From Linyphia triangularis (lineage: Eukaryota > Arthropoda > Arachnida > Araneae > Linyphiidae), in NCBI GenBank assembly GCA_963978545.1, contig OZ021727.1, forward strand, positions 49,924,487 to 49,988,486: a DNA stretch of 64,000 nt, in the 5' to 3' direction. Under the pieces are notes generated by a model. The model was given only the letters and a program-made list of their open reading frames with translations. It was not told the origin of the DNA and did not search any database. Made by a program: the position numbers and the translations under genes. Below, one piece after another: positions 1 through 29,260 of this stretch. How positions within the stretch are numbered: position 1 is the stretch's first letter; each line of letters starts with the position of its first letter.

Positions 1-2638
1 ATTTCAGCACACAGTCCTTTGGAGTCGGCATCTTGATGCGTTGGGGTGAGTGCTCGTTACAGTACGGGACATGTGCTTTAAGAGTCTCCTCCTTGGCAAA
101 ACGATGAAGACAGCTATAACAATAGTGGGTCTTGTGTCCATGCTTAGTGAGGTTGCTGAGAAGCCTGGACATACTCTTAATTAGACAGTAATGCTGCCTC
201 TCTCCTTCTATGATGTAAAGTAGGTTGATAACCTCAGGATCCTCCCTCTTAGAGATGTATAGAGGTAATATCTCATCATCTTCATAGCCGTAGACGTTAA
301 TGCGGAGGTTGTTCAGTGCCTCCACAAAACGAACTTTGCAGGGTTGGACGGGACAGCTTACACTTCCCATTTTGAGCTCCTGCTCGAATTCCAGATAGTG
401 AGAAACTCTGTATGGATGATCTGTATAGCTCATGGGGTGGAGGGCAGCCAGGACAGACCAGATGAAACATTTACTGTCTTCGTTCTGGATGTTGAGAACT
501 GCTTGCTTCGCTGCTAACTTGTTGGGTAACTTGAAGTGGCTAGCAGGGGCTAGAGGTTGATATGTAGCAGTCTTCACCTCCAAATGAATAATTTCATCGA
601 GGACCCATCCAGATCCCCGCTCGATGAATTCATCGAAGGAGGACTTGATTTTGGCGAAGGCTTGGTCGATGTGTTCAGGGAGGACGCTGTCATCCAGCTC
701 CATCTGCACCTTACTCCGGAAATAGGGTGTGGCATATTCCTCGTCTCCCTCATCACTCTTACGAACGAACCGGATCTTGGACACAACATACCACTTAATG
801 GCCCTCTTCTCTCCCAACTCCTCCTGCAGCACATCCTGAACTTGGGGAGTGCTTTCCCTAATGAAGAGAAGCAGGTCTCCAACTGCCTCTTCACTCGGGA
901 ATAAATGGCGGGTGGCAAAGACATCAGACGTCTTCACCTCTACTCTCCTCCTTCTGGGCACAGAGGGTGCAGGTTGAATTCCTCCTACTTGAGCAACTCG
1001 AAGGTGGGTGAGAAGATGTTGCATCATGACATCTTTACGACCGAAACTCTTTCCGCAGTCAGGACAGGCATGAGGGGTAGCAGATTGATGACTCTCCATG
1101 TGTCGATCCAGATCCGATTTTCGAGTGAATGACTTCTGGCATATCTCACAGGTGAAATTCTTCGTGTCAGTATGAATCTTGAGATGGCGAGTTAAATTCC
1201 GCTTCTCCGTAAAGGACTTGTTGCAGATGTGACATATCTGTTGGGAAAAAAAAATTATTGAAGGACACACATTTTTTCCAAAACTTTATTTAAAAATATC
1301 TTCTTCTGGAAAGCTCTCCTGAAAACACATTATTTTCAGAAATATCTAAAAACTTTATTACAAAAATGGATTGAAAATCTTCAAATATATTAACTGAAAA
1401 CATTTTACAAAATATGTCTTCTCTAAAAATTACTTAAATTTGTAAAATATCTGAAAACATTTTTTATTAAAAATACTTTATTTCTATAAACTATCTATAT
1501 ATGTGAAACATACTTTATTTTAAATCAAAGTATCTAAAAACTCTTTCTGCAAAATATAATTTAAAAACTAATACTTACATGAGGTTCAACATTGGAATTC
1601 CTAGCATTGGAAGGTCCAGCAATTGAGGATGCAGCATGTTTAGAGGCTCCGGCAGCAAGTACCTAAGAAAATTATTTAACATTTAAATAAGCTATTTTAA
1701 CATATTCTAAACAATAGTTTATCCTTAGAATGTAATACTTACAGTTTTCTGATGGATTTTCATGTGCCGGGTAAGAGTAAATTTCTGTGTAAAACCCTTC
1801 TGACAGATGGTACAGACCTGTTGAAAATAAAACTTTGAGTAATATGTTTCTTAAAGTTATTATTCTTTCACTTAAATGATAAAAATAATACTTACATGCA
1901 AGTCTTGTGAGGTGGATGCAGCATTAGAAGGTCCAGCAGCAGTAGATTCAACAACAACCTCCTAAAGTAAGATATTGAGAAATTATTCTAAGTTTTTTAC
2001 GTCAGAGAAAAATCGGGTGTGAATTTGGGGCGACTTTGAATAGTTACAACAATGAAAATTGCTAAGTATAAAAGTAATGAAAATTTTGGCGTGAATTTGG
2101 GGCAACTTTGAATAGTTACTGCACTGACAATTACTAAGTACAAAAAGTAATGAAAATTTCAGCGTGAATTTGGGGCGACTTTGAATAGTTACAACATTGA
2201 AAATTACTAAGCAATGAAAATTTTGGCGTGAATCTTATACTAATATTCAAGTGAATGACATTTAGAAAAAATACCAAGTACAAATTTTGGCGTGAATCTT
2301 ATACTAATGAACAACATTTAGAAAAAGTTTTAAGGAATATATTATTGACATGAATTTTAAATATAATTGAGAAAGTTTTAAGTGAACAAATCAATTATGC
2401 GACGTTAAATAACACAGTTTAAAATTTATCTTAGACATTAAACATTCATCTACTTAAAAGCAACAAGTTTAACCTTATTTAAAGAATATTCTTTTAGATA
2501 CATAGTAAGTAATTTTGAAATAAATACAATCTATAAGCATTCAAACATAATTTAAAAATATATTACTAAAAGAACACTTACTTGGTCATTAACTTCCATA
2601 ACGATATCCATGGGAGAAGGAGAACGTGATGATGACAT
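1..2638 (-). CDS. Zinc-finger family B DNA polymerase gene, left copy (5' part, truncated by window edge)
   Basis: This is the mirror copy of the right-hand gene. Exons on the minus strand are 2582-2638 (start codon), 1896-1961, 1743-1817, 1579-1662 and 1237 down to the window edge. Splice sites and sequence look identical to the right copy. The visible part covers the four C2H2 fingers, the central Cys/His-rich region and the sequence up to just before exonuclease motif I. Whether the catalytic half exists to the left cannot be seen. The two copies are transcribed divergently away from the palindrome centre. Confidence 0.85.
2015..2310. repeat. ~71 bp tandem repeat inside intron 1 of left gene
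   Basis: Three units beginning GTGAATTTGGGGCGACTTTG lie at about 2021, 2092 and 2164, followed by two degenerate units. The period is about 71 bp. Confidence 0.8.
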
Positions 2639-2940
2639 TATAAATAACTGAAATTTAAAAAAATATATATAAATATCGAAAGAAAAACATACATTTTCAA
2701 TACAAGTTGGAAATAATTTTTATGTAATACTTGAATCGTCTACTTTAACATACTTAACACATTTTAATATATATATTACTTAAAAGATACTAACATTTCA
2801 CAAATAATAAAAATTTACTTACCGAATAATTCAGATGAAATCAGAAAAAAGCTAAAGTAGCAGCAAAATATGATAAACAAGCACAATAAGCAAATACTAA
2901 GCAAACACGATAAACGTCTTTCGCCCTCAGGAATCTAAGT

Positions 2941-2978
2941 AGAAATGACGAGACGGCAACCGGTAGCGTCTATATATG
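2941..2978 (-). promoter_or_regulatory. Core promoter of left-hand polymerase gene (mirror copy)
   Basis: This is the mirror image of the right-hand promoter, with the TATA box at 2971-2976. The two TATA boxes are about 530 bp apart and fire outward from the palindrome centre. Confidence 0.55.
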
Positions 2979-3188
2979 AGGGGTGATCACGTAACTTCAC
3001 CGACCAATCAGATTTCACGGTAGAGGGCGCTGCTTGGTTCTAACCGATCAGAGCGGGTGGGGAGCGAGACTAGGCATGTTTCAACACGCTTCAACGCGTT
3101 TGCGAGTTGAGTTGTTGATAATGATTGCAAAATATAAACTCATTGGCTTTTAACACATGACGTCATAATGATGATATGGCTGGAATCT

Positions 3189-3292
3189 AGCATTTAAACA
3201 GATAAGGTATTGGCGCTTATTTATTAAATGAATATTTATTTATAGAAAAATTATCACGTGGGTTTTTAACGTTGATACTTGTTGAAATGGAA
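3189..3292. other. 104 bp unpaired spacer at the palindrome centre
   Basis: This AT-rich spacer joins the two arms and is not self-complementary. It contains an E-box-like CACGTG near 3256. It does not resemble a SMRTbell hairpin adapter as I know that sequence, which argues against the simplest long-read artefact. It may be the unique loop of a head-to-head junction (inference). Confidence 0.8.
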
Positions 3293-3502
3293 AGATTCCA
3301 GCCATATCATCATTATGACGTCATGTGTTAAAAGCCAATGAGTTTATATTTTGCAATCATTATCAACAACTCAACTCGCAAACGCGTTGAAGCGTGTTGA
3401 AACATGCCTAGTCTCGCTCCCCACCCGCTCTGATCGGTTAGAACCAAGCAGCGCCCTCTACCGTGAAATCTGATTGGTCGGTGAAGTTACGTGATCACCC
3501 CT

Positions 3503-3540
3503 CATATATAGACGCTACCGGTTGCCGTCTCGTCATTTCT
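3503..3540 (+). promoter_or_regulatory. Core promoter of right-hand polymerase gene
   Basis: A TATA box (CATATATAGA, TATATA at 3505-3510) lies about 30 bp before a TCATTT initiator-like site near 3533. The predicted transcript then has a short leader, a donor at 3659 (CG|GTAAGT), an acceptor at 3833 and the ATG ten bases later. TATA-to-start spacing is what an RNA polymerase II promoter should show. The start site itself is inferred. Confidence 0.55.
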
Positions 3541-3658
3541 ACTTAGATTCCTGAGGGCGAAAGACGTTTATCGTGTTTGCTTAGTATTTGCTTATTGTGC
3601 TTGTTTATCATATTTTGCTGCTACTTTAGCTTTTTTCTGATTTCATCTGAATTATTCG

Positions 3659-3833
3659 GTAAGTAAATTTTTATTATTTGTGAAATGTTAGTATCTTTTA
3701 AGTAATATATATATTAAAATGTGTTAAGTATGTTAAAGTAGACGATTCAAGTATTACATAAAAATTATTTCCAACTTGTATTGAAAATGTATGTTTTTCT
3801 TTCGATATTTATATATATTTTTTTAAATTTCAG
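3659..3833 (+). other. 5' UTR intron of the right-hand polymerase gene
   Basis: Donor GGTAAGTAAA at 3658 and acceptor TTTCAG ending at 3833. A spliced leader exon followed by four small coding exons is a structure expected of a cellular or nuclear-transcribed gene. The mirror copy is 2648-2822. Confidence 0.5.
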
Positions 3834-3842
3834 TTATTTATA

Positions 3843-6800
3843 ATGTCATCATCACGTTCTCCTTCTCCCATGGATATCGTTATGGAAGTTAATGACCAAG
3901 TAAGTGTTCTTTTAGTAATATATTTTTAAATTATGTTTGAATGCTTATAGATTGTATTTATTTCAAAATTACTTACTATGTATCTAAAAGAATATTCTTT
4001 AAATAAGGTTAAACTTGTTGCTTTTAAGTAGATGAATGTTTAATGTCTAAGATAAATTTTAAACTGTGTTATTTAACGTCGCATAATTGATTTGTTCACT
4101 TAAAACTTTCTCAATTATATTTAAAATTCATGTCAATAATATATTCCTTAAAACTTTTTCTAAATGTTGTTCATTAGTATAAGATTCACGCCAAAATTTG
4201 TACTTGGTATTTTTTCTAAATGTCATTCACTTGAATATTAGTATAAGATTCACGCCAAAATTTTCATTGCTTAGTAATTTTCAATGTTGTAACTATTCAA
4301 AGTCGCCCCAAATTCACGCTGAAATTTTCATTACTTTTTGTACTTAGTAATTGTCAGTGCAGTAACTATTCAAAGTTGCCCCAAATTCACGCCAAAATTT
4401 TCATTACTTTTATACTTAGCAATTTTCATTGTTGTAACTATTCAAAGTCGCCCCAAATTCACACCCGATTTTTCTCTGACGTAAAAAACTTAGAATAATT
4501 TCTCAATATCTTACTTTAGGAGGTTGTTGTTGAATCTACTGCTGCTGGACCTTCTAATGCTGCATCCACCTCACAAGACTTGCATGTAAGTATTATTTTT
4601 ATCATTTAAGTGAAAGAATAATAACTTTAAGAAACATATTACTCAAAGTTTTATTTTCAACAGGTCTGTACCATCTGTCAGAAGGGTTTTACACAGAAAT
4701 TTACTCTTACCCGGCACATGAAAATCCATCAGAAAACTGTAAGTATTACATTCTAAGGATAAACTATTGTTTAGAATATGTTAAAATAGCTTATTTAAAT
4801 GTTAAATAATTTTCTTAGGTACTTGCTGCCGGAGCCTCTAAACATGCTGCATCCTCAATTGCTGGACCTTCCAATGCTAGGAATTCCAATGTTGAACCTC
4901 ATGTAAGTATTAGTTTTTAAATTATATTTTGTAGAAAGAGTTTTTAGATACTTTGATTTAAAATAAAGTATGTTTCACATATATAGATAGTTTATAGAAA
5001 TAAAGTATTTTTAATAAAAAATGTTTTCAGATATTTTACAAATTTAAGTAATTTTTAGAGAAGACATATTTTGTAAAATGTTTTCAGTTAATATATTTGA
5101 AGATTTTCAATCCATTTTTGTAATAAAGTTTTTAGATATTTCTGAAAATAATGTGTTTTCAGGAGAGCTTTCCAGAAGAAGATATTTTTAAATAAAGTTT
5201 TGGAAAAAATGTGTGTCCTTCAATAATTTTTTTTTCCCAACAGATATGTCACATCTGCAACAAGTCCTTTACGGAGAAGCGGAATTTAACTCGCCATCTC
5301 AAGATTCATACTGACACGAAGAATTTCACCTGTGAGATATGCCAGAAGTCATTCACTCGAAAATCGGATCTGGATCGACACATGGAGAGTCATCAATCTG
5401 CTACCCCTCATGCCTGTCCTGACTGCGGAAAGAGTTTCGGTCGTAAAGATGTCATGATGCAACATCTTCTCACCCACCTTCGAGTTGCTCAAGTAGGAGG
5501 AATTCAACCTGCACCCTCTGTGCCCAGAAGGAGGAGAGTAGAGGTGAAGACGTCTGATGTCTTTGCCACCCGCCATTTATTCCCGAGTGAAGAGGCAGTT
5601 GGAGACCTGCTTCTCTTCATTAGGGAAAGCACTCCCCAAGTTCAGGATGTGCTGCAGGAGGAGTTGGGAGAGAAGAGGGCCATTAAGTGGTATGTTGTGT
5701 CCAAGATCCGGTTCGTTCGTAAGAGTGATGAGGGAGACGAGGAATATGCCACACCCTATTTCCGGAGTAAGGTGCAGATGGAGCTGGATGACAGCGTCCT
5801 CCCTGAACACATCGACCAAGCCTTCGCCAAAATCAAGTCCTCCTTCGATGAATTCATCGAGCGGGGATCTGGATGGGTCCTCGATGAAATTATTCATTTG
5901 GAGGTGAAGACTGCTACATATCAACCTCTAGCCCCTGCTAGCCACTTCAAGTTACCCAACAAGTTAGCAGCGAAGCAAGCAGTTCTCAACATCCAGAACG
6001 AAGACAGTAAATGTTTCATCTGGTCTGTCCTGGCTGCCCTCCACCCCATGAGCTATACAGATCATCCATACAGAGTTTCTCACTATCTGGAATTCGAGCA
6101 GGAGCTCAAAATGGGAAGTGTAAGCTGTCCCGTCCAACCCTGCAAAGTTCGTTTTGTGGAGGCACTGAACAACCTCCGCATTAACGTCTACGGCTATGAA
6201 GATGATGAGATATTACCTCTATACATCTCTAAGAGGGAGGATCCTGAGGTTATCAACCTACTTTACATCATAGAAGGAGAGAGGCAGCATTACTGTCTAA
6301 TTAAGAGTATGTCCAGGCTTCTCAGCAACCTCACTAAGCATGGACACAAGACCCACTATTGTTATAGCTGTCTTCATCGTTTTGCCAAGGAGGAGACTCT
6401 TAAAGCACATGTCCCGTACTGTAACGAGCACTCACCCCAACGCATCAAGATGCCGACTCCAAAGGACTGTGTGCTGAAATTTAGTCAGTACAAGTTCACC
6501 CAGAAAGTCCCGTATATCATATACGCGGACTTTGAGGCCCTTGTAGAGAAGTTGGATGACACCACCTCCACTTCCACTGTGAAGATAGCTACCCACGTCC
6601 CTTGTGGATATGCGTACGTTATAGTAGGTCCAGATAGTAAGCCGACCAAACCCATCTCTGTCTACAGGGGAGAAGATGCAGTGGACCACTTCATCAGTAG
6701 TATCATTGCAGAGAAGGACGAGCTGGCGGTGAAGCTGACCACCATTGTCCCGATGAAGATCACTGCACAGGATCAAATTACCATCAACGCAACGACTCAT

Positions 6801-9107
6801 TGCGGCCTCTGCAAAGGCCGACTAGGAACTGATCGGGTGAACGACCACGATCACTTGACCGGTCAGTTCCGTCAAGTGCTCCACAATGAATGCAACCTTG
6901 CCTTCAGGTTGCGGAAAATGATTCCCTGCGTCTTCCACAACCTGAAGAATTATGATGCGCATTTGATCATGCAGGGGCTAGGGAAAGTGGCTGATCATGA
7001 CATTGGAGTCATCCCTACAACGATGGAGAAATACATCTCCTTCTCCATCACCAAGAAACTTGACAAGATCCCGGTGACTCTCCAGTTTATTGACAGTCTC
7101 CAGTTTCTGAACGCATCACTTCAGAAACTTGTCGATAATCTGGAGAGAGACAAGTTTCACATTTTGAAGAGTTCTATCGCATCTAACCATGGTACGTAAT
7201 ATAGTCAATGTTAATATTATATAAATGTTCTCTTAACAATATCATTTAATTTTTATTTTTTCCTTAGATCTCTTGCTGAAGAAGGGAGTGTACCCTTATG
7301 AGTATATGGACTCGTTCACTAAATTTCAACAAACATCTCTGCCACCTCAGCAAGCCTTCTATAGCACCCTTACAAACTCCTCCATCACCGATGCAGATTA
7401 TAGTCATGCTCAAGTTGTTTGGGAAGTTTTCGGCATCAAAGACCTTGGCGAATATCACGACCTGTACGTGAAGACGGATGTGCTCCTCCTCGCAGACGTA
7501 TTCGAGAATTTCCGCCGCCTAACTCTGGACTTTTACCAGCTAGACGCCGCTCACATGATGACGTCTCCGGGGTTAGCGTGGCAAGCCGCTCTCAAGATGT
7601 CAGATGTCGGTTTGGATTTATTCACTGACATCGACATGCACCTCTTCATAGAGAAGGGTATTCGGGGAGGAGTCTCCGTCATCACCCATCGTCATAGCCA
7701 GGCAAACCATCCAGGCTGTCCTGAATATAATGCTGCTAAGGAGAAGAAACATATATTGTACCTGGATGCCAATAACCTCTATGGTAAGCATGAATTTACT
7801 TTAAAACTGTCATTTTTTTATTTAGCTTCTATGTTAATATTGAATGATTTAATTGGATTTTTCTTTCAGGTTGGGCCATGTCTCAATACTTACCTGTTGG
7901 TGATTTTCAGTGGGTGAACCCTGAAAACATCCCTACTAAAACCATCTTGGACCAAGCAGATGATGCAGATGAGGGCTTCATCCTAGAAGTGGATCTCGAC
8001 TATCCTGCTGAACTCCACGATCTCCATAATGATTATCCTCTGGCTCCCGAACGCTTCACCATAAAGCCAAATATGCTGTCTCCTACCGCCCTCGAGATTT
8101 TGGAAGAAATGCAGATGAAGCCAGCTTCTTCCAGCGAGAAACTCGTTCCGAATCTTCAGTCAAAGAAGAATTATGTTATACACTATCGTAATCTGAAGCT
8201 ATATCTTTCCTTGGGACTGAAACTAACTAAAGTTCATAGAATTCTAAAATTCTACCAACAACCTTGGCTGAAGGACTACATAGCATTTAATACGGAGCAG
8301 AGAAAACTGGCCAAAACATCGTTTGAAAAAGATTTCTTCAAACTTCTCAACAATGCGGTGTTCGGGAAAACTATGGAAAATCTGAGGAATAGAGTGGATG
8401 TTCAGTTGGTGAACAACCCACATAAAGCCAAGAAACTGGTCGCGTCTCCTGCCTTCCATGCCTTCACTGAGTTTGATAACAGCTTGGCAGCAGTACAAAG
8501 AAAAGTGAAGAGTCTCACACTTAATAGACCCATTTATGCTGGTTTCACCATCTTAGAACTGAGCAAGGTTTTAATGTATGATTTCCACTATAATGTCATC
8601 ATGAAGAAGTATGGAAGTAATGCCCGCCTACTATTCACCGACACAGATTCACTCACTTATGGACTCACCACCCCAGATCTGACTGCTGACTTACATCAGT
8701 TAAAGGGATTTTTTGACTTTTCTGACTACCCATCAGATCATCCCCTACACGATGTGTCTAACAAGAAGAAGATCGGTTACTTTAAGGATGAACTTAACGG
8801 AAAATCTGCTTTGGAGTTCATAGGGCTTCGTTCCAAAATGTATTCCATTTTAAGTGAGTGTGGTGAGAAACAAACGGCCAAGGGAATCGCAAGAGCAGCT
8901 CAAAGACAGCTAAAACATCAGACCTATAGAGACTGTCTTCTCAATCGACAACCTTCGTCTGTGGTTCAGCATCGGATCGGTAGTGAAAAACATTACATTT
9001 TCTCCATCCAGCAAAGAAAGCGAGCGCTCTCGGCATTTGATGACAAGCGATACCTGTTGGAGGATGGTATAACTAGTTATGCGTATGGTCACTACAAAAT
9101 TCCTTAA
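3843..9107 (+). CDS. C2H2 zinc-finger / protein-primed family B DNA polymerase, spliced, complete
   Basis: Seven coding exons join in frame to about 1,327 residues: 3843-3899, 4520-4585, 4664-4738, 4819-4902, 5244-7191, 7268-7783 and 7870-9107, all with GT-AG introns. Four C2H2 fingers lie at about residues 43-62 and 95-178. A Cys/His-rich stretch follows (KCFIWSVLAALHP near 349, a further CxxC-H-C finger near 465). The polymerase has Exo I (YADFEA, ~523), an HNH-like insert (DHDHLTGQFR, ~628), Exo II (HNLKNYDAHL, ~660), Exo III (DLYVKTD, ~808), motif A (LDANNLYG, ~908), motif B (NNAVFGKTMEN, ~1076), motif C (TDTDS, ~1172) and KMYS (~1238). This motif set is that of the viral/organellar protein-primed PolB family found in Polintons and relatives. 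No integrase, ATPase, protease or capsid gene is visible, so the element type is unassigned. Catalytic residues look intact. Confidence 0.88.
4171..4466. repeat. ~71 bp tandem repeat inside intron 1 of right gene
   Basis: This is the mirror copy of 2015-2310 within the other arm. Confidence 0.8.
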
Positions 9108-9914
9108 ATCATTCATTTAATCCTTAATTTTTTTTTTTTTTTTTTTTTTTTTAAACCTTAATTTAACTAAAATATTACTTTAACTAAATTTTTAAAAACT
9201 TATTTAACGTTAATTTTTTTTTCAAGGATTTTGTTAGTGACCATTAAATTTAATTTTGGGAAATATACGTTCTCACAAATCTTCTTTTCAGATTTCCTAA
9301 ATTTCAAAATTGATTAGGATTTGAGGTGATGGTGTCTTCTTAAAAGATATTATTGGATGGTTGGTTAGTGACCTCATATTTCAAGGAAATATACGTTCTT
9401 TGGAATAAGTTTTTTTTTTTTTTGATAGGGTGGAGTGAGGCGGTACCAATTCTTCCTAAAAGAGGTATCGGGCTGGAGGTGGGTCCTCACTTTTAAAATT
9501 TAACTTCAAAATAATTAATTGTAATTCTAAAGTCTTAACTTATTCAAAATTGGTTAGGGAAGGGGGGTGGGTAGATGAGTTACCATGAAGGCAACGTCCG
9601 ATAGTCGATATTTTAACAATTGTTTGGTAAAATATTGAAATGTCACGTGTAGCTCGGGGTTAGGGTTCTTTTTGACCCTTAGCAAATGGCCTTCACTTTT
9701 ATTAAATTTTCAAATTTAACATTTTTTTTTTTTTTTTTTTTTTTTTTATTTGTGTAACTTTGTTGCAGGTATTTTAACTTGATTAAAGGATATGTAAGTA
9801 ACTCGCTAGAAAACCAAACAGTCAATCAGGAGTTAACTTTTGGTCACATGTTTAAAACTTATCAGTCACAAGCGAGCATTTAGCTGACCGATCAGAACTC
9901 GTTGCCAACACCTG
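9108..9914. other. Presumed 3' flank of the polymerase gene; poly-T tracts
   Basis: No coding region is seen. Two long T tracts (9128-9152 and about 9721-9747) and the repeated phrase GGAAATATACGTTCT (near 9259 and 9390) stand out. No AATAAA was noticed near the stop codon. Confidence 0.6.
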
Positions 9915-10622
9915 AAAACTAAATTTGGTATATATCCAATGTTATCACCACTTAAAACGTAAATCTTAACATAGAATGACGTCATACCCACTGTAACGTC
10001 ACTAGTCAAAAATACCTATAACTCTAACTTATTCACTTAGAAGCAGCCCTAAAACAACTCAACTCCACCTGAAAGGTAAATCGAAACTAAAAAGTATTGC
10101 CACTGCTCAAAACTTTTAACGTTAAGCAAGTTATGGCGTCATACTCACTGTGACGTCACTAGTAAAAATATCTATAACTCTAACTTATTCGTTAAGAAAC
10201 AGCCCTAGAACAACTCAACTCCAGTTAACTGGAAACAAAAACTAAAAAGTGTTGCCATCGCTCAAAACTTTGATATAAAACAAATTATGACGTCATACCC
10301 GCTGTGACGTCACGCAATAAAGCCTATCACTCTAACTTATTCGCTAAGAAGCAGTCCTAGAACGACTCAACTCCATCCTAAAGGTAAATCGAAACTAAAA
10401 AGTGTTGCCACCGCTCAAAACTTTGATATAAAACACATTATGACGTCATATCTACTGTGACGTCACGCAATAAAAGCCTATCACTCTAACTTATTCACTA
10501 AGAAGCAGCCCTAGAACAATTCAGCTCCATCTTAAAGGTAAATTGAAACTAAAAAGTGTTGCCATCGCTCTAAACTTTGATATAAAACACATTATGACGT
10601 CATACCTACTGTGACGTCATAC
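9915..10622. repeat. ~154 bp tandem array with paired TGACGTCA sites
   Basis: About four and a half units, anchored by ATGACGTCAT-like sequences at 9976, 10133, 10287, 10440 and 10594 (spacings 157, 154, 153, 154). Most units carry two copies of the octamer TGACGTCA or a one-base variant, about 17 bp apart. Two more lie just outside at 10701 and 10716. TGACGTCA is the palindromic CRE/ATF site in animals. The same octamer occurs at 3158-3165 and 3316-3323 next to the palindrome centre, which hints that the array belongs to the polymerase element (inference). Confidence 0.85.
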
Positions 10623-10913
10623 ACAAACAGCTTATAATGAAACTAAAACAACAGCAGGAGGGGAACAACTCAACTCCACTTCCGGTCACGTGATTTCCGG
10701 TGACGTCATATCCTGTGACGTCATATCCGGTCACGCCCCCATACCATACCATGCCTGCTCCGCTGCTCCGCCATGGCTTCGGATCGGCATTTTCTAACTA
10801 CTTACCACGCTTCTTTTTTAGCACGCTTCCTTCGGCCACTTTTATTATTAAGAAAGCAATGTATAAATGCGTAATTCAAGTAGTAAAATAAAGTCACACC
10901 ACCCTGTACACAA
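10623..10913. other. No gene seen; two further TGACGTCA sites
   Basis: This stretch contains TGACGTCATATCC at 10701 and TGACGTCATATCCGG at 10716 plus related TCCGGTCACG phrases. No coding region is supported. Confidence 0.5.
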
Positions 10914-10931
10914 GTCCTGTCACGGACGCCA
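10914..10931 (-). other. Primer-binding-site remnant of an LTR retrotransposon
   Basis: GTCCTGTCACGGACGCCA is the exact 18-base reverse complement of the primer site of the BEL element at 14079-14096. It suggests a decayed minus-strand LTR element whose 5' LTR would lie to the right, ending near 10,933. No matching pair of LTRs was found. Confidence 0.45.
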
Positions 10932-13429
10932 GATGATCTTAATGCAGACACTTCCCAGAAATAAAGGTCTGTTCGTTTCAGATCCCTATACTATCTTTCA
11001 GTTTAGAAGAGCAAGCCTTTGGTTTACCAGCCATATTCATACAAAATTGATGTCTCAAAATCTTTACCTACCACTTTCACCTTAGAAGAACTCCCAAGAC
11101 TTCGTTAACTCCACACTACAACATTTATTTCTAGCGAGTTAAAAAGACAGTCTATACTAATTACATAGAATACTTCGCTTCACAACATCACAAGTCATCG
11201 CGTATTCAAAGGAATCGAACTGAACCTCTCGTCAAATGTAAATAAACAGTTCGATTGTGGAAGAGCGCTATCTATTGAGGAAAAAGTACACTGTTCCAAA
11301 CTGCAATTTATCTACAAGTGGAGAAAAGTGTATATAAATACACTGTTCTTTGCTTCTATTTTGAAATGCCAATATTGCTTTTTCATAAGTAGAAAGCATA
11401 TTCGTAGGCATATCACAGCTTGACCCAAACATATGTCAAATTATGTCTTTTCTTAACAACGCTACAATACAGTATTCGTTCAAGTACACAAACAAATCTC
11501 ACATAATAAAATCATAATTTAATTTACTTTGAAGGAATAGGGTTCACAGATCAGGCGTCTAATTCCGTAAGCCGCTGACAATTGCACTAGAGGGTTGTCG
11601 GACTGATTCAACAGTAATGTGGGGAAAGGGATATGGGTAAAAAAAAAAACCTTGTAATGTACATAGTACTACTAACTATTCAATAATCATCAATTTCTTA
11701 GGATTTATATTGTAAAAAACATTTATTTTTAGTGTAAAATCATTTAGCCAAAAATTAAGACTTTTTCCAATTTTTTTTTTTTTCGAAAATTCAACCCTCT
11801 TGCAACAGTGTTAATTTTGAAATTCATTTTTTTATTATTTTTTTCCTTAATCTCCATACTATAGAACATCTTTTCCCCGTAGGTAGGATCTGATTAATGA
11901 TAATTTTTTTCTCAATAGAAGAGCGATCCACCCTACTATACACCAATAACGGGACTTCGTAATACGAGACAATGCAGCTAGTCTATAATATAAAAAAAGT
12001 TTAAATTTTGAAATTAATTGTAAATTTTAAATGGCCATTATATTTCAAGGGGTGTGCTTTTCAGAGACAGGTTTTAGCGCTGCAGTGGAAGTAAGAGGAA
12101 ACTTCATAGGTAAACTTATTTTGGGGAATACAGAGGTCGCTAGTAGTCACAACGCACCCTGGTACTCAATAAAGCCAACTAGAAAGTGCACTCCAATTTG
12201 AAGAAATTACACGCACAAAACATATTATTGAAAATTTACTCTTTTTTTTCATTAGCTGCCGTCCCTCGACAGAGAGTTAGTGGAGTTATAAAAAATGAGA
12301 AGTATCATTAGCTGAAAATCTTTGGGTTCAAAGATTTTTTTTTTTTTTTTTACCACATTCTCAGAGTATTTGTACGTTTTAAATATCTTCAAAAAGCTAC
12401 TTCAGCAAATTTGAGCCGCTTTTGTGAATCAAAGTAGATGACCAAATTTATCTCACTTTTTGGCCACAAATCCGGCTACCAAAGTGAAAGTCTTAAAGTT
12501 TTTTGTGTTAGTACAATTCCATTGTGAGTATCTAAATACGGTGTTACTAGCTAATATGTGAATGTTCAAACTCCATAAGAATTATATTTTTGTTAGCAAC
12601 ACACTTTTTATTATACAATATGTGTAAGTTAAAAAATTCTACAAAGAACCATCGGTAAATTCTTTATACACAAATACTATTAATTTGGTTTCACTTTTAT
12701 TACAATGAGTGATACAGTCAATCAGGGTAACATTGAACCACATTTTCAGTATTTTCTTCTTCCCCACTTATGTTTTTATAGTATTTTCAGACTTAATGAC
12801 ATAAAATGTAAGAATAAACCCTAAATTATATTTTAATTTACACAAATTAGTAAATGTTGATGATGAAAGCACCAAATAATAGGAAAATAACCCGGTGCAA
12901 AGTTACACTGGCATTTAGAGTAACTTTGAACCACTATATCAGAACTTTAATATTTTCCTTTTTTTTTCTATTCAGTCTAGGACTATTCAATATTTGAACT
13001 AGTAAAATTAAGTTTCTAAATATTTGAAACATCATCAGCTGCAGTTTTCAACATCCTAAAGTTTGTATACGTTAAATAATACTACAAAGAATATATTAGG
13101 TCGGAACAATGGATGATGAATCACATGAATATGTTGCATAAAAACCTATTTATTGTTCAGTTTAAACATACAAATATAGTGAAAAAACAATCTTCAGTTC
13201 ATTCACTTAAATATAAACTCATTTTATCAATTAAAAATTGAAAAGATAAATAGAAAATAGTAAAACTGATAGGCCGCCCTTATGCAATTAGTTAAGTACT
13301 ATGGAGTTTGCAAGTCACAATATGGCACAAATACGAATATTATATTCTTAATGTTAGAAATAGTATGACAATATAAAAATAAAGTTTAAACTTCATAAAA
13401 TTCCACTTTGGCATCCTTCAGATTAATAG
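10932..13429. other. Gene-poor AT-rich stretch, no supported gene
   Basis: Its left end may contain the LTR belonging to the primer-site remnant. Phrases like GTAACTTTGAACC recur near 12,728 and 12,920, with a related phrase near 23,280, so part of it is a dispersed repeat. No convincing coding region or splice structure was found. Confidence 0.5.
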
Positions 13430-13840
13430 TTTTGCATCAAAGAAAGAATTATTGATCTGGAAAACATCTCGTCTTCTAGCTGGAATAATAATTTCTGGAG
13501 ATAATTATTTTAAACACTCCTAATTTTTCATACCACAGATCACCATTGATATTGGGCCATTTCCAATATGCACCAGATTTCTTCATGAACCACCAAATAT
13601 CACGTTGTCTTTTAAGTCAATTTGATCTGGGTACATTTCTCCATCGTATTGAATAATTATGTGGTCGTAAACTTTGCATATGCCATAACCAAAATCTAAA
13701 ACACTTGCATGCTTTGTGTATAAAATTCCTTTCTCATTGATGTGTTCAACAGCCACCACTTCAATAATCTCTGATTTTTCAGTAACATTCTCCACAACAA
13801 TTTCAGCAGTATAAACCTCTATCATATCCTTATTGTTCAA
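13430..13840 (-). pseudogene. Decayed gene fragment, C-terminal domain of an uncharacterised repeat-linked protein
   Basis: An 85-codon reading frame from 13840 to 13583 is followed, after a +1 shift at about 13,595, by a further open stretch with a GAYWKWP and NGDLWYEK pattern and then by RRRDVFQI. Read together, the series of YDGEMYPDQI, the W-K-W-P block and the R-R-x-F-x-I end resembles a C-terminal domain I associate with uncharacterised arthropod and fish proteins often linked to transposons. The match is from memory of a general pattern and no function is known. At least two disruptions are visible. It ends about 40 bp from the BEL element. Confidence 0.35.
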
Positions 13841-13877
13841 CTTTCACCTTCTCTGAAAATGATAGTGTTGCACATAC

Positions 13878-14074
13878 TGTTAAGTGTCATAATAATTTAA
13901 TTCAGTTTTTTAGTTTCTATCTTGTGACAATGGTATTTGTAAATAAACGAAACGAAAATGAGAAACGCAACGGTTGTTATGGCATCCGTGTCTTTTTATT
14001 TTAATTAGAAGCAGAAAACAGGTAATTATCTACTGCAAATTCTAATATTTAAGTTATCGTTGAGTTATTTTACA
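13878..14074 (+). repeat. 5' LTR of the BEL/Pao element
   Basis: 197 bp, TG...CA ends, matching 22610-22806 except about three substitutions (for example CTTGTGACAA versus CTCGTGGCAA). Confidence 0.93.
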
Positions 14075-14930: not shown

Positions 14931-14972
14931 TCTTATGGTCTTAGGTACTATTTTACCAGTACTAATATATAC

Positions 14973-15517
14973 AGGGTGTTTCTAAACTCATGGTACAAAC
15001 ACTAGGGGGTGATAGAACACATCAAGACGAGTAAGAGTAAATAGGAAACCAAGGGTCCCAGACGTATTCCAAATTAGATAGGTGCCATCAAAGTTTAGGG
15101 TCCCAAATTGCAAATGATCATAAAAAAGGGAAAAATAAGTCGATTTATTTGCGGTTTTAGCTGAAATCATTCTTTAAATTAGTATTTTCTTTAAAAAAAT
15201 TTTAAAGACAAAGTTCTAAAAATGTCGGTAGAGGGCGCTCTAAACTTTGGAGTACCGAAAAATTACTTTTTTGCCGTTTTTTTTTTTTAAACTGTTTTAA
15301 CTGTTACTAATTTAAAGAATGATTTCAGCGAAAACCGCAAATAAATCGACTTATTTTTCCCTTTATGATCATTTGCAATTTGGTACCCTAAACTTTGATG
15401 GCGCCTAGCTCCTTTGGAATACGTCTACGACTCTTGGTTTCCTATTTACTATTACTCGTCTTGATGTGTTCTATCACCCCCTAGCGTTTGTACCATGAGT
15501 TTAGAAACACCCTGTAT
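14973..15517. mobile_element. Foldback MITE with ~220 bp inverted arms
   Basis: Left arm from ACAGGGTGTTTCTAAAC and right arm ending GTTTAGAAACACCCTGT are inverted copies over about 220 bp with a ~90-100 bp centre. Flanks are TATATA on the left and TATAT on the right. It carries no coding capacity. The superfamily is not assigned. Confidence 0.8.
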
Positions 15518-15659
15518 ATTTGGTGCGATTTTATACTTCCATATTTTTTTTTTACTTTCAATTACCCGTGTGGTATAAAAGTATTGAATTCGGCACACAC
15601 AAAAAATCGATTTTATATCATTTTTACACGTTTTGGAACGTGATGAGTTCAAAAAAATG

Positions 15660-17282: not shown

Positions 17283-18620
17283 CAGTGGCGGATCCAGGAT
17301 TTTCCTGAGGGAGGGGCGCAACAATTTGTCGTGCCTTAGTCAGGACGAAATTGAATATTTAAAAAAAGTTTTTTTTAAAGAAATCCAAGTAGTGTTAAAA
17401 AAATATATTTCAAGATCATCCATATCCATTGATTGACCCCTCCCCCCCCCCCCCCCTCACTTCATTCGTCACATCTGCGACTTGATAGCTTAGCGTAGGG
17501 TGGTTAACATTGTCCTTTTGTTTGTTCATTAACTATTTTATTCAATAAAAAAATTGTATTCAAAATGTACCGTACGTATTAAACATTTTAGCAAGCTACA
17601 TTTCCGGAGATATCGATTATACTGAAGAAACTACAATGAAAGCGGGAATTTACTACTTTTATTTGTGACTAACTGACTAAGTATGAACCTTACATTATAC
17701 TTACATCAAACTGGGAAATCAGTAATTGTACATCAAAATTTAACCTATTCATAAAATATTAATGCAGTGAGCTTAATAAGTAAAAATACGTAGTTTTACT
17801 GGATAATCCATATATAGCTACTCGAGTATTCTAAAGTATGTAGGGAAAAATTGTTTTCCAAAGAGAATGTATTACTAATAATTATAAGTAATATTTTTAA
17901 TAAGGCAGATAATACTTTTTACAAAACTGTTTGCAAGTCTATTTCTTGTAAAAAATTGGCATACCTTTCCACTGTGGTGTGGCAAAGGAGGATTTTTAAT
18001 CTTAATTCAAACATGGCGCTTATTTACAAGCTGAAACACAAGCACGAGCTGGACGAGTACTTATGCAGTTTATAAACAACCTTATTCTCCTTTCTATCAA
18101 AACTTTAAAGTTTAGCCAATTACCATGTCCAGCTGAATGAAGGTAGCTATTTCCGAGGAGGGAGATTAACCCAAATGGTCAACCTCTCATCCTTTTCCCC
18201 CCGTAGTTGGCGTTGAACATTACCCATGTGAGAGTCAAAATCTCTTCCTCCCAGCCGACAGAAAAATGTATCTTTGGTCCTGGAGGACGGGAAGAATATT
18301 TATTGATAATTCGATCCCAGGATACTTTTAACAGAAAGGGATGTGTTTTGAAGTGTCGTGAAGATGTCTTGAAGATCAAGGGGGTGGAGGTTTGAATGCT
18401 TGTACAGTCTTTCAACGTCCGTTTGAATGAGAAGGGAGAAGGCTATAAAAAGAACTTTGATCCAAAAATAAGCTCTTTTTTTTTGTTTTTCTGTTTTTTT
18501 CGGCAATTAGATGAAGGTCGAAATATGTTTGTTACGTGAACTTATTTAAAAAAAAATATATAGACTCAAGCTGAGGGAGGGGCGCGCGCCCCCCGCGCCC
18601 CCTGGCTGGATCCGCCATTG
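17283..18620. mobile_element. hAT-like element B, adjacent to A
   Basis: Ends CAGTGGCGGATCCAGG and GGCTGGATCCGCCATTG are inverted. It is followed by TG then CCCAATGC, the same flank found left of A. Its sequence at 17,905-18,190 aligns with A at 16,601-16,800, so A and B are members of one family. It has no transposase. Confidence 0.78.
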
Positions 18621-18622
18621 TG

Positions 18623-19546
18623 CCCAATGCTAAAATGGCTGAGATAAAGAACATTATTCTTAGCAGCGAAGAGTATAAAAAGGATCCGGGTTTCACCAAG
18701 GACATTTTGGAGAGTATTATTTCTGAAAGAAAAATTCGTGAAGAACAAGAACGAGAAAGAATTAATCGTGAACAAGAAAGAAATTATGATTTAGAGAAAG
18801 CCAGAATGGAACATGAACTGGAATTGGCGAGAGTTTGTGCCCAGGGACCTTTCCAAAGTGAAATTCAACCGGAAATCGGAAATTCTAAGAGAAAATTCAC
18901 TTTACCTAAATTGGAATTTCGTCGATTTGGCGATGATATTAAGGAGTGGCTTCCGTTTTGGAGTCAGTTTGAACGTATTGATAAAGATGAAGATATTGCG
19001 CCAGAAGACAAGTTCCAATACCTAATACAAGCTACCGTTCCGGAAACCAGGGCAAGAGAAGTCGTAGAGAGTTTCCCGCCAACAAGCGCCAATTACTCGC
19101 AAGCGATTGAAAGTTTAAAATCACGGTTCGGCAGGGAAGAGCTTCTTGTTGAGGTATACGTTCGGGAGCTTTTAAAGCTTATTATATTTGTCCAGAGCAA
19201 GCAGAAGTTTTCGCCAACCTCATTATACGATAAGCTTGAGTCATATCTGCGTGCATTGGATTCATTAGGAGTTACAACCGAAAAATGTACCTCGATTTTG
19301 TATCCTATGGTGGAATCATGTTTTCCTGAGGACTTTCTAAAAGCATGGAATATGAGCTCAATTTCTTCAGGAAAGGAAGCCAAAGAGCGTCTCACTGACC
19401 TGATGTCATTTCTAAAGTCAGAAGTAGAGGGAGAAGAAAGAATCGGTCTTGCGATGGCGGGTTTTGGATTGGCAAAAAATGAACTCCCTCGAGTTAACAA
19501 AAATAAAAAGTATGAATCTGACTTTTGTTTAGAAATAAAACACTAA
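18623..19546 (+). pseudogene. BEL gag, 3' fragment (DUF1759-like)
   Basis: This resumes the gag frame after the nested elements. A charged helical stretch rich in E, R and Q (about 18,720-18,840) precedes the conserved core LPKLEFRRFGDDIKEW, which is typical of BEL/Pao Gag. The core continues for about 190 residues. The frame ends at 19546 soon after the core. Zinc knuckles and protease are missing, which fits the deletion that joins gag directly to RT. Confidence 0.8.
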
Positions 19547-19555
19547 CTGCAGCTG

Positions 19556-20145
19556 GTTTGCTGTCAACAATCACCCTTCTCTAAACCAGTGCTTAGAACG
19601 TGGGCCTAATTTTATCGAGTTAATTCCAGATATTCTGCTGAGATTCAGGGAGCGAAAGATTGGTGTAACAGCTGACATTAAGAAGGCCTTTTTACAGATC
19701 AGCGTGTGTCAAGCCGATAAAGACTTCCTGAGATTCCTATGGTGGGAGAGCAGAGAAGAAAAGAAACTCCAAGTATTTCGTCATACCAGAGTAGTGTTTG
19801 GAGTAAAATGTAGTCTTTTTCTTTTGGTAGCAGTAATAGAACATCATGTCAACTGTTCAGAAGACTTAGAATCTGATTTTAAGGAGAAGCTTCTTAAAAG
19901 TTTTTACGTCGATAATGTAGTGGCTAGTGTTAATAGTGAAGAAGAATTAAAGAATTTTGTGGCGAAATCCAAAGAAGTAATGCGTAAAGGAGGATTTGAT
20001 CTCAGAGGCTGGGAAAACTCTGGAGAAAAATGCAAAGCAGGTGAATCCCCTGAAACTCCCATAGTTGGACTGATTTGGAATCGTCAAGAGGACACATTGA
20101 AAATTAATATGAATTGGTTAAAGGAAGTAAATCTTCATTGTCTCA
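19556..20145 (+). pseudogene. BEL reverse transcriptase, N-terminally deleted
   Basis: The fragment opens at SLNQCLERGPN and includes GVTADIKKAFLQI, which holds the first catalytic Asp. The catalytic box reads YVDN instead of YxDD, so the third catalytic Asp is lost (about 19,900). The frame shifts near 20,140 into the RNase H frame. The fingers and protease are gone. Confidence 0.82.
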
Positions 20146-21007
20146 CCAAACAATGATTTTGTCAGTCGCCCATAAAGTTCATGATCCTGTTGGTTATTCT
20201 TCACCGGTGATGCTTTGTCCTAAATTAATGTTGCGAGAAGCTTGTAGAAAAGGAATCGGTTGGGATGAAGAAATCGCAGGAGACATAAGAAATAAGTTCT
20301 TTCAGTGGTTTGAAGAATTAAAGTTCTTAGAAGAAATACATATACCCAGGTATATTAAAAGCGATCACGAGAAATTGGAAAATTGTGAAATACACTGTTT
20401 TTGTGATGCCACTAAAGATGCCTTTGCCGCTGTAGTTTTCTTCAGAATTGAAACTGAAAATAAGACAGAGTTAGTACTTCTTGCATCAAAATCTCGCATT
20501 GCACCTCTCAAGGGTGGAACTATTCCTCGGTTGGAACTTTTAGCTGCTTTAGTGGGAGCTCGATTGACGAAGTCGGTGATAGATTCCCTGCGATGGGAAG
20601 AAGTAAAATGTCATTACTGGAGTGACTCGACGACAGTGCTCGCATGGATATCTCGAGAAGAAAACTGGTCGGGTTTTTTTTTAAATAGTGTGCAAGAAAT
20701 AAAGAAACTGAGTAGTCCCTCCTCATGGCACCATGTACCTGGTGAAATGAATCCTGGAGATCTACCATCGAGAGGATGTAATGCAAAGCAACTATTGAAC
20801 CTCGCATGGTGGGAGGGTCCACTCTGGCTGAAAGAATCCAGGAATAGTTGGAGTCATGTAGGGATAGAAGAAATTATCAATGAAGAAGAGATTCTCAAAG
20901 AGAAGTTAAAATCTACTACCCTCACAAATGTTGAAGAAAGTTCTGAAGCAAACTGGTATTATGAATACTTCTCAAAGTATCCGCATATTATCCGTCTGGT
21001 TTGTTGA
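20146..21007 (+). pseudogene. BEL RT connection and RNase H
   Basis: HDPVGYSSP opens the connection domain. RNase H shows the acidic residues in CFCDAT, IPRLELLAA, HYWSDST and NPGDLPSRG, so its catalytic set looks intact. The frame ends early at 21007 and the sequence continues in another frame from about 21,008. Confidence 0.85.
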
Positions 21008-22508
21008 ATTTGCCGATTCATTCATAACTGTTCTTCAGCTAAAGAAGATAGAACATTTGGAGAAATTTCAGCCCTGGAGTATGGGAATGCGGAATTAAAA
21101 GTATTGAAGATGATACAGCAACAATCTTTGGTGGCGTTGGAAAATAAAAAGCTGAAAAATCTCTCGACATATAGGGATAATGACGACATTATAAGAGTAA
21201 AGACGCAAATTACTTACAGGAAAGATGAAGAAGACTTTAGAAAACCTGTTCTTCTACCAGCTGATCATGAAGTAGTTAAGAGACTTATACGTTTTCATCA
21301 CGAGAAAAACTCGCATTGTGGTGCTCAAATGTTGTTAAATATCTTACGAGAGAGATACTGGATATTAAATGGCAAGAAAAATGTGAGGAAAATCATCTCG
21401 AGCTGTTCTATCTGTGCAAGATTCTCTTCACGGAAGGTCGAAAGTACAGTTTCCCCGCTTCCAGAAAATCGTGTACGGGATGCTGCAGTCTTCCAGATTT
21501 CAGGAGTGGATTCCGCTGGACCCTTATACCTGAAGGATAATACGAAAGCATGGGTACTCATCTTTAACTGCGCGATATATCGAGCTGTACATCTCGAGTT
21601 GGTCAGCAGTGTTTCTAAAGAAGTTTTTTTGATGGCATTAAGGAGATTTGTGGCCAGAAGAGGTAGATGTTCTACAATTTATTGCGACAACGGTAGTAAC
21701 TTCGTCGGTGCCGCGAACTGTCTACGTATGTTGGACTGGAATAAAATTATGAAACATGGAGCCATCAATAACATTGAATGGAAGTTCAATCCACCGACAG
21801 CTGCGTGGTGGGGTGGTTGGTGGGAGCGGCTCATTAGAATAATGAAAGACCTGCTCAAAAGAGTTTTAGGCCGAGCCCTTCTATCTCAAGAAGAGATTCT
21901 GACAGTGTTGTGCGACTGCGAATCACTGATGAACTCGCGTCCTCTTACATATATTTCGGAGAGTAATGTAGATCCAGTTCCCCTTTCACCATCCATGTTT
22001 CTACAAGACATACCGGAATGGAGAGTGCCAGACCTTGATGCAGTCGATCAGAAAAGCCTAAATCGAAGATTAAAGTATCGGCAGGCTCTACAAAAGGATC
22101 TCCGAAACAGATTTCGATCAGAGTATTTAGGTCTTCTTGTACAGAAGAATAAAAAGGCAGATTCCCGTATCATATCCTTGGGAGATATTGTATTAGTTGG
22201 AACCGACAACAGCAAAACAATAAATTGGCCTTTAGGACGGGTTGTCGAGCTACTACCTGGTAAGGATGGCAATGTGAGGTTGGTCAGAGTGCAAACCGCC
22301 CATTCTAATCTCCTCCGCTCTTATCCAGAGATTATATCCTTTAGAAATTTCTGCAGACTCGGATATTTTAAACTCTGGTAGTAAATTAAACATGAAACTG
22401 AAATCATGGGTGCCTAAAGAAGATGTGCCTGTTGCTACAGCGAATCAACCTAGCCACATCACTAGAACTGGACGGGCTGTCAAGATTCCTGAAAGACTGA
22501 ACTTGTAA
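21008..22508 (+). pseudogene. BEL integrase and C-terminal domain
   Basis: An HHCC zinc-binding region (FHHEKNSHCG and SCSICARF) precedes the catalytic core with VDSAGPLY, YCDNGSNF and AWWGGWWERLIRI, giving D, D and E. A DUF5641-like C-terminal part (GDIVLVG, WPLGRVVEL) follows. The main frame runs from 21,104 to 22,381. The genuine tail, ending GRAVKIPERLNL at 22508, is in another frame after a shift near 22,336. Confidence 0.87.
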
Positions 22509-25830: not shown

Positions 25831-26423
25831 CCAGATGGCGTCACTAGCACCATTATCTCCTGGATCACTTCAGAAGTGATTTATTTTCGACTAATTCCTT
25901 AATTTTTGGCTAATTATTCCCAATTCTTTAGTGTTAATAAATTCATCTATTACTACTTAAACATGTCTTAACAATATTTCTTTGATCAAACCTATATTTA
26001 GTTAGATTCTTGGGTTTTTCCATGGCAAAACGAAGATCGTTATGCAGAATATAGCAACCCTATAGGAGGATAAGTGAAGAAACTCAAGTCCTTAGCCGCC
26101 TAACTCGTCACCCTGTGGCAATTTTCTGAAACGTGAAACTCTTGACAATTGGCTTTTGTGGACTGGACAGCAGTGACTGATTTACATGGTCAGCAAAAGG
26201 GGAGCATAGTGAAGAGATGGTCCCCATTTGACCCCAAAGGTCACATTGACAAGAAGTTAATTGCTTTCTTTTGCCCGGGGAGGGGCAGGAACCTAATCGA
26301 GAGCGCATTTCACGTTTCTAGCGTTTTTCAAAGGCCCGATGCTACCTTCTGGAAACGTCACAAACGGGGTCTGTATGAACGGGATCTGACAACAGGCAGC
26401 AATCACCATTAATACTTGTTATA
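25831..26423. other. No gene recognised; two overlapping short frames only
   Basis: Locally less AT-rich (26,100-26,400). Frames of 87 residues (plus) and 66 residues (minus) overlap here, but neither resembles a known family and no splice or promoter context is convincing. Confidence 0.4.
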
Positions 26424-26611
26424 AGCTTGGCGTCCACTATCGCTAAGCAGAGCAGATCAGAGCGGAGTGGATTAGAGCCAATTACAAGGCTTTCAACGTC
26501 CATTGTAGTTCAAGGCTCGTGCTATAGTAGACATTGGCAGCATTGTAATTGGCTCCAATCTACTCCGCTCTGATCTGCTTTGATCTGCTTAGCGATAGTG
26601 GACGCCAAGCT
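26424..26611. mobile_element. Foldback element, 64-69 bp inverted arms
   Basis: AGCTTGGCGTCCACTATCGC at 26424 pairs with GCGATAGTGGACGCCAAGCT ending at 26611. A 55 bp centre separates the arms. No coding capacity. Flanks are TATA-rich, so the target duplication is unclear. Confidence 0.85.
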
Positions 26612-28323: not shown

Positions 28324-29009
28324 AAATTTGAATTATGAGATTTTGTTAAGTAGAATTATTTTTAACAAATTATTTGGTATACATGTACATTTGAGATGTT
28401 TTTCTTTAATTATTATGTTAGAATTTCCGAATTTTATACAATATATCAGAATGAAAAACAAAACATTTTTACAAATAAATTTTCTATGTGTATTAATTAT
28501 TTAATTAGTTATTTGAAATTTAAATGACTAATTTTGCCATTGTGAGAACGAACAGAAATTAACTTATAGATATGATTTTTATTTCAAATAAAATATATTA
28601 TATTCATACTTGTTTCATACAAGAATATTAAATTTAGCTTAATCATTATAAATTTATTTAATTATAATTGTTTTAATTATTACATTTATTTAATTATAAA
28701 AAATATAATTAATACTTATTTGGTTATAAATTTTAATGAAAAAGTTTGAAAAATTACGTAGTGTTTAGCAAAAAATTTAGATTAAAAGATATATAAAAAA
28801 AATTGTTTTAAAAAAAATATATTTTAGATTAGGCATAAAACATACTTACAGCTATTTTCTACAAAAACATAATCAGAGTTTTTTTACAAATCGGATCATG
28901 TTTACTGAAGTTATGTCTGTTGGAGTCGTATAATACCACCAAAATGTAATTCTTCAGAAAACAAGTTTAACGTTTACTACACTAATTAATGTGATACAAA
29001 ACAGGAACC
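28285..29009. other. AT-rich intron-like stretch, no gene
   Basis: Poly-T at 28,292-28,320 and very AT-rich DNA up to the Gypsy insertion at 29,010. Confidence 0.55.
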
Positions 29010-29241
29010 TGTGGTATCGTGGTCGAGTAAAAATTTCATTTTGAACGAAAACAAAACACATTTATTTTAAGAACTTCACAAGGAGCAGGTGTTAGTGTTC
29101 CATTTCTGAATCGTCTGGTCTCTCTCGTCTCTCATAGGAGACTAATCAAAAAAACAACATAACAAAATACAATCTTCAAATAACTGTTTTGTGGCGCCCT
29201 CTATATTTTACAACAGCAATTAACAATTACAATACGTTACA
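29010..29241 (-). repeat. 3' LTR of the Gypsy element
   Basis: TG...CA ends in minus-strand reading. Identical by eye to 34601-34832. It contains the GGCGCCCTCTATATTTT block. Confidence 0.94.
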
Positions 29242-29260
29242 GCTATTAATTCCTCCCCTC
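29242..29260 (-). other. Polypurine tract of the Gypsy element
   Basis: On the minus strand GTGAGGGGAGGAATTAATAG lies directly before the 3' LTR. Confidence 0.5.

What the first reader, a model, noticed from the sequence alone, without database searches (positions are those of the whole stretch)
1..6480. A >6.4 kb near-perfect palindrome of a DNA polymerase element with a 104 bp loop
Two arms of at least 3,188 bp match with no indel or mismatch seen, although they hold introns and AT-rich DNA that should diverge fast. A head-to-head arrangement with promoters firing outward is what a linear element that replicates through hairpin ends or head-to-head concatemers would leave behind. Other explanations are very long terminal inverted repeats, recent inverted duplication kept by gene conversion, or a foldback assembly artefact.
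Basis: partly seen in the sequence, partly recalled or inferred. Interest (0 to 1): 0.85.

Follow-up and report, generated by a model that had tools for sequence, protein, structure and literature searches.

The report
Mirror-image twin DNA polymerase genes
What is probably a spider genome carries, or has been assembled to carry, two near-identical back-to-back copies of a virus-derived DNA polymerase gene; this is either a recent inverted duplication or an assembly fold-back, and the sequence alone cannot tell which.

Summary
The palindrome is real as sequence. Arms 1-3188 and 3293-6480 flank a 104-bp spacer; they differ at one base (1549 versus 4932, in an intron), no indel. The left arm runs off the window, so its true length is unknown. 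The right arm holds the promoter region and first half of an intact-looking gene (my model: seven coding exons, 3843-9107, 1327 codons by length). It combines C2H2 zinc fingers with a protein-primed-type family-B DNA polymerase. Relatives include spider proteins and two viral contigs (43-44% identity), one with an A32-type ATPase and an rve integrase, i.e. Polinton-type. The spacer is not self-complementary beyond chance and the arm end has no partner in the window, so hairpin telomeres or a short-TIR transposon end are not supported. Best reading: a young inverted duplication giving divergent copies, like the C. elegans F44E5.4/F44E5.5 pair (2207-bp arms, 126-bp spacer). An assembly or library fold-back is nearly as likely: the mirror reaches the window edge, and the genome search was unanswered in 10 of 10 tries.

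The parts
1..3188 (-). left arm: second copy of the 5' half of the zinc-finger/PolB gene with its promoter region, oriented leftwards; cut by the window edge
   Evidence: 3187 of 3188 bases complementary to 3293-6480
3189..3292 (.). 104-bp asymmetric spacer, 26% G+C
   Evidence: no self-complementarity beyond chance
3293..6480 (+). right arm: promoter region, 5' exons, zinc fingers and N-terminal part of the PolB gene
3335..3510 (+). promoter-like stretch: CCAAT 3335-3339, inverted CCAAT 3473-3477, TATA-like 3504-3510; TGACGTCA lies just before it at 3316
   Evidence: read; TGACGTCA; not tested for function
3659..3833 (+). possible intron in the 5' untranslated region (GTAAGT ... CAG)
   Evidence: read; donor listed; not confirmed by transcripts
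3843..9107 (+). intact-looking zinc-finger/PolB gene, seven coding exons 3843-3899, 4520-4585, 4664-4738, 4819-4902, 5244-7191, 7268-7783, 7870-9107; six GT-AG introns, no internal stop, 1327 codons by length
   Evidence: my exon model, exons checked apart, not joined; no transcript evidence; homologs
5244..7191 (+). exon with C2H2 fingers and the N-terminal polymerase region; sub-threshold Endonuclease_7 match
   Evidence: run on the ORF 5211-7196
7878..9107 (+). polymerase C-terminal part including TDTDSL; top structural match phi29 DNA polymerase
4932..4932 (+). the only base that differs between the arms (partner 1549), inside intron 4903-5243
9976..10735 (.). 154-bp tandem array (4.2 copies, 9976-10619) and 15-bp repeats (10681-10735) downstream of the gene, with ten TGACGTCA sites

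Best explanation
A genuine, very young inverted (head-to-head) duplication of an intact, intron-bearing zinc-finger/PolB gene unit of Polinton-type origin in an arachnid, probably spider, genome. It most likely arose by fold-back or template-switch DNA synthesis around a point about 0.2 kb upstream of the TATA-like box, leaving a 104-bp single-copy spacer and two divergent genes, each with its own promoter region. The arms are alike because the event is young or because the arms convert each other. Shown: sequence, arms, single mismatch, open exons, family. Inferred: that it exists in the living genome, how it arose, that the left copy is complete, and that both copies are expressed.
For: Arms differ at 1 of 3188 bases with no indel. 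At a recalled Drosophila rate of 2.8e-9 per site per generation one difference means about 56,000 generations, Poisson range 1,400-310,000, a plausible age. The right copy looks intact: 7 coding exons, 6 GT-AG introns, no internal stop. The fold point lies upstream of promoter-like sites, so both copies keep theirs. The spacer is asymmetric and not self-complementary beyond chance, as in a duplication with a spacer. A natural precedent has the same shape: C. elegans F44E5.4/F44E5.5, divergent genes, 2207-bp arms, 126-bp spacer, 99.7% (PMC1803023, passages). Fold-back priming that leads to large palindromic duplications is described in PMC7999016 (passages).
Against: The left arm reaches the window edge without ever leaving the mirror, which is also what an assembly fold-back would show. 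No reads, no flanking contig and no second assembly could be examined: the genome search was unanswered in 10 of 10 tries. Nothing shows gene conversion or expression.
Confidence: 0.5

Rival explanations
1. Assembly or library fold-back: a strand or read folded on itself near 3189-3292, and the left arm is an artificial mirror of a single gene copy at a contig end.
For: The mirror extends to the window edge. One mismatch and no indel in 3188 bases is what one accurate read or a polished consensus would give (inference). Fold-back reads make up about 0.55-0.6% of ONT genomic reads (PMC12870357, passages and Discussion section). After whole-genome amplification 45.8% of reads of one PacBio set and 11.8% of another held palindromes, against 0.5% in a non-amplified control, and inverted duplications entered an assembly (PMC6218980, passages).
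Against: The fold point lies just upstream of promoter-like sites of an intact-looking gene, an unlikely spot for a random break, though this was noticed after the fact. [quoted passage not shown] An unpolished noisy read would give many differences, not one. Whether the window starts at a contig end is unknown.
Confidence: 0.4
2. Long terminal inverted repeats or a foldback-type element whose body is the 104-bp spacer, or two transposon copies inserted head-to-head.
For: A polymerase relative sits in a Polinton-type viral contig. TGACGTCA sites (12 of 12 in the window) lie only between 3158 and 10716, near both ends of the gene unit.
Against: The arm end ATATGGCTGGAATCT matches only itself in the two arms and a 2-mismatch site at 59717; 32 of 100 shuffles give as many matches. 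Comparison of 3189-3700 with 9101-14000 in both orientations gives scores within the range of shuffles (28 and 30; shuffle maxima 34 and 35). No target-site duplication was assigned.
Confidence: 0.07
3. A linear replicon with hairpin ends, or head-to-head concatemers made during its replication.
For: The polymerase is of the kind that includes protein-primed enzymes, and replication through hairpins would leave exact head-to-head arms.
Against: The spacer is not self-complementary beyond shuffles (z -1.08 as DNA, 33 of 200 shuffles fold as well; z -0.76 as RNA, 36 of 200; 116 and 186 of 1000 shuffles align as well to their own complement, and 290 of 1595 other stretches of the window do). Protein-primed polymerases start at open ends bearing a terminal protein rather than at hairpins (recalled). 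The gene has six introns by my model and no partner genes in view.
Confidence: 0.03

Closest known systems
Divergent inverted gene pairs of Caenorhabditis, e.g. F44E5.4/F44E5.5 (PMC1803023, passages)
   Same: Two homologous genes head-to-head, arms of kilobases including coding and intergenic DNA, near-identical, spacer about 100 bp (104 here, 126 there)
   Different: Gene is a mobile-element-derived DNA polymerase; arms at least 3188 bp and 99.97% identical; no orthologous locus seen; locus not confirmed by reads
Polinton/Maverick elements and adintoviruses (PolB)
   Same: Family-B polymerase with phi29 polymerase as top structural match; a related viral contig, L002, has an A32-type ATPase, an rve integrase and a sub-threshold capsid match
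   Different: Here a gene with introns and C2H2 fingers; no integrase, capsid or ATPase seen downstream of it; no terminal repeats found
Sex-chromosome palindromes kept by gene conversion
   Same: Human Y palindrome arms exceed 99.9% similarity (PMC3723533, search listing)
   Different: Human Y palindrome arms are 8.7-1450 kb (PMC6218980, passage), longer than what is seen here; chromosome unknown
Library and assembly fold-backs (PMC12870357, PMC6218980)
   Same: Near-perfect mirror around a small gap
   Different: Not established that the window starts at a contig end; one clean mismatch

Membership tests
Divergent near-identical inverted gene pair (Caenorhabditis type) | Two homologous genes in divergent orientation | tested here: met
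   left copy seen only up to the window edge
Divergent near-identical inverted gene pair (Caenorhabditis type) | Arms include coding and intergenic DNA at high identity, short spacer | tested here: met
   3187 of 3188 bases, spacer 104 bp
Divergent near-identical inverted gene pair (Caenorhabditis type) | Structure present in the living genome and kept in related species | not testable with these tools
   no reads; the genome search unanswered in 10 of 10 tries
Polinton / adintovirus | Family-B protein-primed-type DNA polymerase | tested here: met
   DNA_pol_B_2 below cut-off on 7273-7914 and no Pfam match on 7878-9104; homologs carry PF03175; phi29 polymerase is the top structural match, E 3.5e-3, probability 1.00, TM 0.39, no match at E 0.001; no sequence match to solved structures. 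Priming by protein itself not tested
Polinton / adintovirus | Integrase, capsid and packaging ATPase in the same element | tested here: not met
   none on the visible side: no ORF of 80 aa or more at 9108-12000, none of 90 aa or more up to 14627; the side beyond position 1 is not visible
Polinton / adintovirus | Terminal inverted repeats bounding the element | tested here: not met
   a left end outside the window cannot be excluded
Polinton / adintovirus | N-terminal OTU-like domain of PolB plus hexon (adintovirus definition in PMC11071296, passage) | not tested
   no structural test of the N-terminal part was run; no hexon gene in view
Hairpin-ended linear replicon | Self-complementary terminal hairpin at the centre of head-to-head copies | tested here: not met
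Assembly or library fold-back | Mirror continues to the contig end and lacks reads with unique flanks | not testable with these tools
   mirror reaches the window edge; contig position and reads unavailable

The most novel reading that the evidence does not exclude
The zinc-finger/PolB gene is an autonomous single-gene element that multiplies through head-to-head intermediates, so that palindromic pairs with a shared spacer are its normal product and recur through the genome.
Probability: 0.04. Interest if true: 0.75.

Novelty: new member of a known kind. Interest (0 to 1): 0.3.

Why it matters
If real, it is a young, near-perfect palindrome with two divergent copies of a Polinton-type polymerase gene, a convenient case for seeing how long inverted duplications arise and persist in animals and whether lone viral polymerase genes are still spreading in arachnids. 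If an artefact, it is a warning that gene copy numbers of such families can be inflated by fold-backs in assemblies.

Tried and rejected
Hairpin telomere at the centre: rejected on folding and self-alignment of the spacer against shuffles. Short-TIR transposon end at 3188/3293: no partner in the window above chance. Exact spacer letters in viral contigs: 0 matches. Sequence match of the polymerase C-terminal piece to solved structures: none by single sequence or by profile. TGACGTCA clustering as an element boundary: left open; it may just be CRE-like promoter sites (name recalled). The viral relatives' own repeats: L001 has, among inverted repeats, only short ones (longest about 110 columns, at 2731-2832), L002 only direct ones; neither shows a head-to-head gene pair, but each locus is only part of its contig. 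Literature: (Polinton, palindrome, head-to-head) listed one plant-transposon review; (PF03175, expansion, gene family) listed none; some searches were seen as listings, and passages were read of PMC11071296, PMC5765664, PMC12870357 (outline with abstract; passages; Discussion), PMC6218980, PMC1803023 and PMC7999016. I make no claim that such a pair is unpublished.
Full report
Observation. The inverted repeat is present at the stated coordinates: arms 1-3188 and 3293-6480, spacer 104 nt. A base-by-base comparison finds one mismatch, 1549 versus 4932, and no indel. The inner error-free stretch is 1639 bp per arm; apart from this palindrome the longest exact inverted arms in the window with copies less than 3 kb apart are 46 bp, and chance cannot account for it. 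Because the left arm ends at the window edge, the palindrome is at least 6480 bp long and its left limit is unknown.

The gene. The right arm and what follows hold a complete-looking gene. In my exon model seven coding exons between 3843 and 9107 have GT-AG introns, consistent phases and no internal stop, 3984 nt in all; there is no transcript evidence. A possible further intron in the 5' untranslated region (3659-3833) and TATA- and CCAAT-like sites upstream are visible by eye. The ORF 5211-7196 carries C2H2 zinc fingers (PF00096, E 2.4e-15) and a sub-threshold Endonuclease_7 match; the 7273-7914 piece matches DNA_pol_B_2 at E 2.9e-4, 20.3 bits, below the curated cut-off of 25.8; the 7878-9104 piece has no Pfam match. 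Homology supports the name. For the 662-aa piece 270 of 6400 candidates match, the best by E-value being Araneus ventricosus and Larinioides sclopetarius at 49-50%. A 13-row alignment keeps the TDTDSL block. A model of moderate confidence (pLDDT 69.7, residues 358-409 poor) has phi29 DNA polymerase as its top structural match (E 3.5e-3, probability 1.00, TM 0.39, rmsd 8.0; no match reached E 0.001). Sequence searches against solved structures found nothing.

Host and kin. Of 62 listed hits to a Gypsy-type polyprotein of the same window, 51 have a name, and 50 of these are spiders (34 Trichonephila, 14 Araneus, 2 Stegodyphus) and one a damselfly (the database may be rich in these spiders). The polymerase groups with Larinioides and five unnamed sequences (support 100/99, 7 of 33 rows); the host is probably a spider or another arachnid. 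Two viral contigs carry relatives at 43-44% identity; their polymerases have long, unsurely placed branches and no Pfam polymerase match themselves. L002 (8 ORFs scanned) has a Pox_A32 ATPase, an rve integrase, a GIY-YIG protein and a sub-threshold capsid match beside its polymerase; L001 (7 ORFs scanned) has a phospholipase A2-like and a tail-fibre-like gene but no integrase or ATPase match in the part held. I infer that the gene derives from Polinton-type elements; here it stands alone on the visible side: no ORF of 80 aa or more at 9108-12000 and none of 90 aa or more up to 14627. Of the 9 ORFs listed in 1-12000, 3 were run through Pfam; the others are short frames over or against the same gene.

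Centre of the palindrome. The spacer is 26% G+C. It does not fold better than shuffles (DNA z -1.08, 33 of 200 as good; RNA z -0.76, 36 of 200) and does not align to its own complement better than shuffles (116 and 186 of 1000) or than other stretches of the window (290 of 1595 as good). There is thus no sign of a hairpin telomere or of the decayed core of an older palindrome. The arm end has no partner elsewhere in the window above chance, and 3189-3700 shares no significant stretch with 9101-14000. All 12 TGACGTCA sites of the window lie between 3158 and 10716, two at the arm ends and ten downstream of the gene; this may mark the unit or just be promoter-type sites.

Real or artefact. For a real duplication: the fold lies upstream of promoter-like sites, the gene looks intact, one clean mismatch sits in an intron, and a natural precedent exists in C. 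elegans with 2207-bp arms, a 126-bp spacer and 99.7% identity (PMC1803023, passages). Fold-back priming as an in vivo route is described in PMC7999016 (passages). For an artefact: the mirror never ends inside the window; fold-back reads are known at about 0.55-0.6% of ONT genomic reads, though virtually absent from the HiFi data examined, and assemblers screen for them (PMC12870357, passages and Discussion); whole-genome amplification makes palindromes that enter assemblies (PMC6218980, passages). One difference in 3188 bases fits a single accurate read, a polished consensus, or an event of 1,400-310,000 generations (mutation rate recalled). I put a real duplication at 0.5 and an artefact at 0.4; these odds are judgement, not computation.

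Verdict. A confirmed sequence feature of a known kind, of uncertain reality, with no evidence found here for an unusual replication mode.

Noticed in passing
9976-10735: 154-bp tandem array (4.2 copies) and 15-bp repeats rich in TGACGTCA just downstream of the polymerase gene; all 12 TGACGTCA sites of the 64-kb window lie between 3158 and 10716.
   Followed up: partly
2019-2211 and 4270-4462: 73-bp tandem repeat (2.7 copies) inside an intron, present in both arms without difference.
   Followed up: no
14967-15519, 26420-26614, 35481-36274, 63735-63861: Smaller self-palindromic stretches, 82-85% identity to their own complement, possibly MITE or foldback elements, more diverged than the main palindrome.
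   Followed up: no
29009-34832: Gypsy-type retroelement, minus strand, with identical 233-bp direct repeats at 29009-29241 and 34600-34832, which suggests a recent insertion.
   Followed up: partly
18575-22381: BEL/Pao-type retrotransposon: DUF1759, Peptidase_A17, Integrase_H2C2, DUF5641.
   Followed up: partly
48096-49978: Copia-type gag piece (zinc knuckle; Retrotran_gag_2 below cut-off); the piece 49311-49601, which looks integrase-like by eye, had no Pfam match.
   Followed up: partly
L001 451-6283, L002 601-12955: Viral contigs carrying a distant relative of the polymerase: phospholipase A2-like and tail-fibre-like genes (L001); GIY-YIG, Peptidase_S74, A32 ATPase and rve integrase (L002).
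   Followed up: partly
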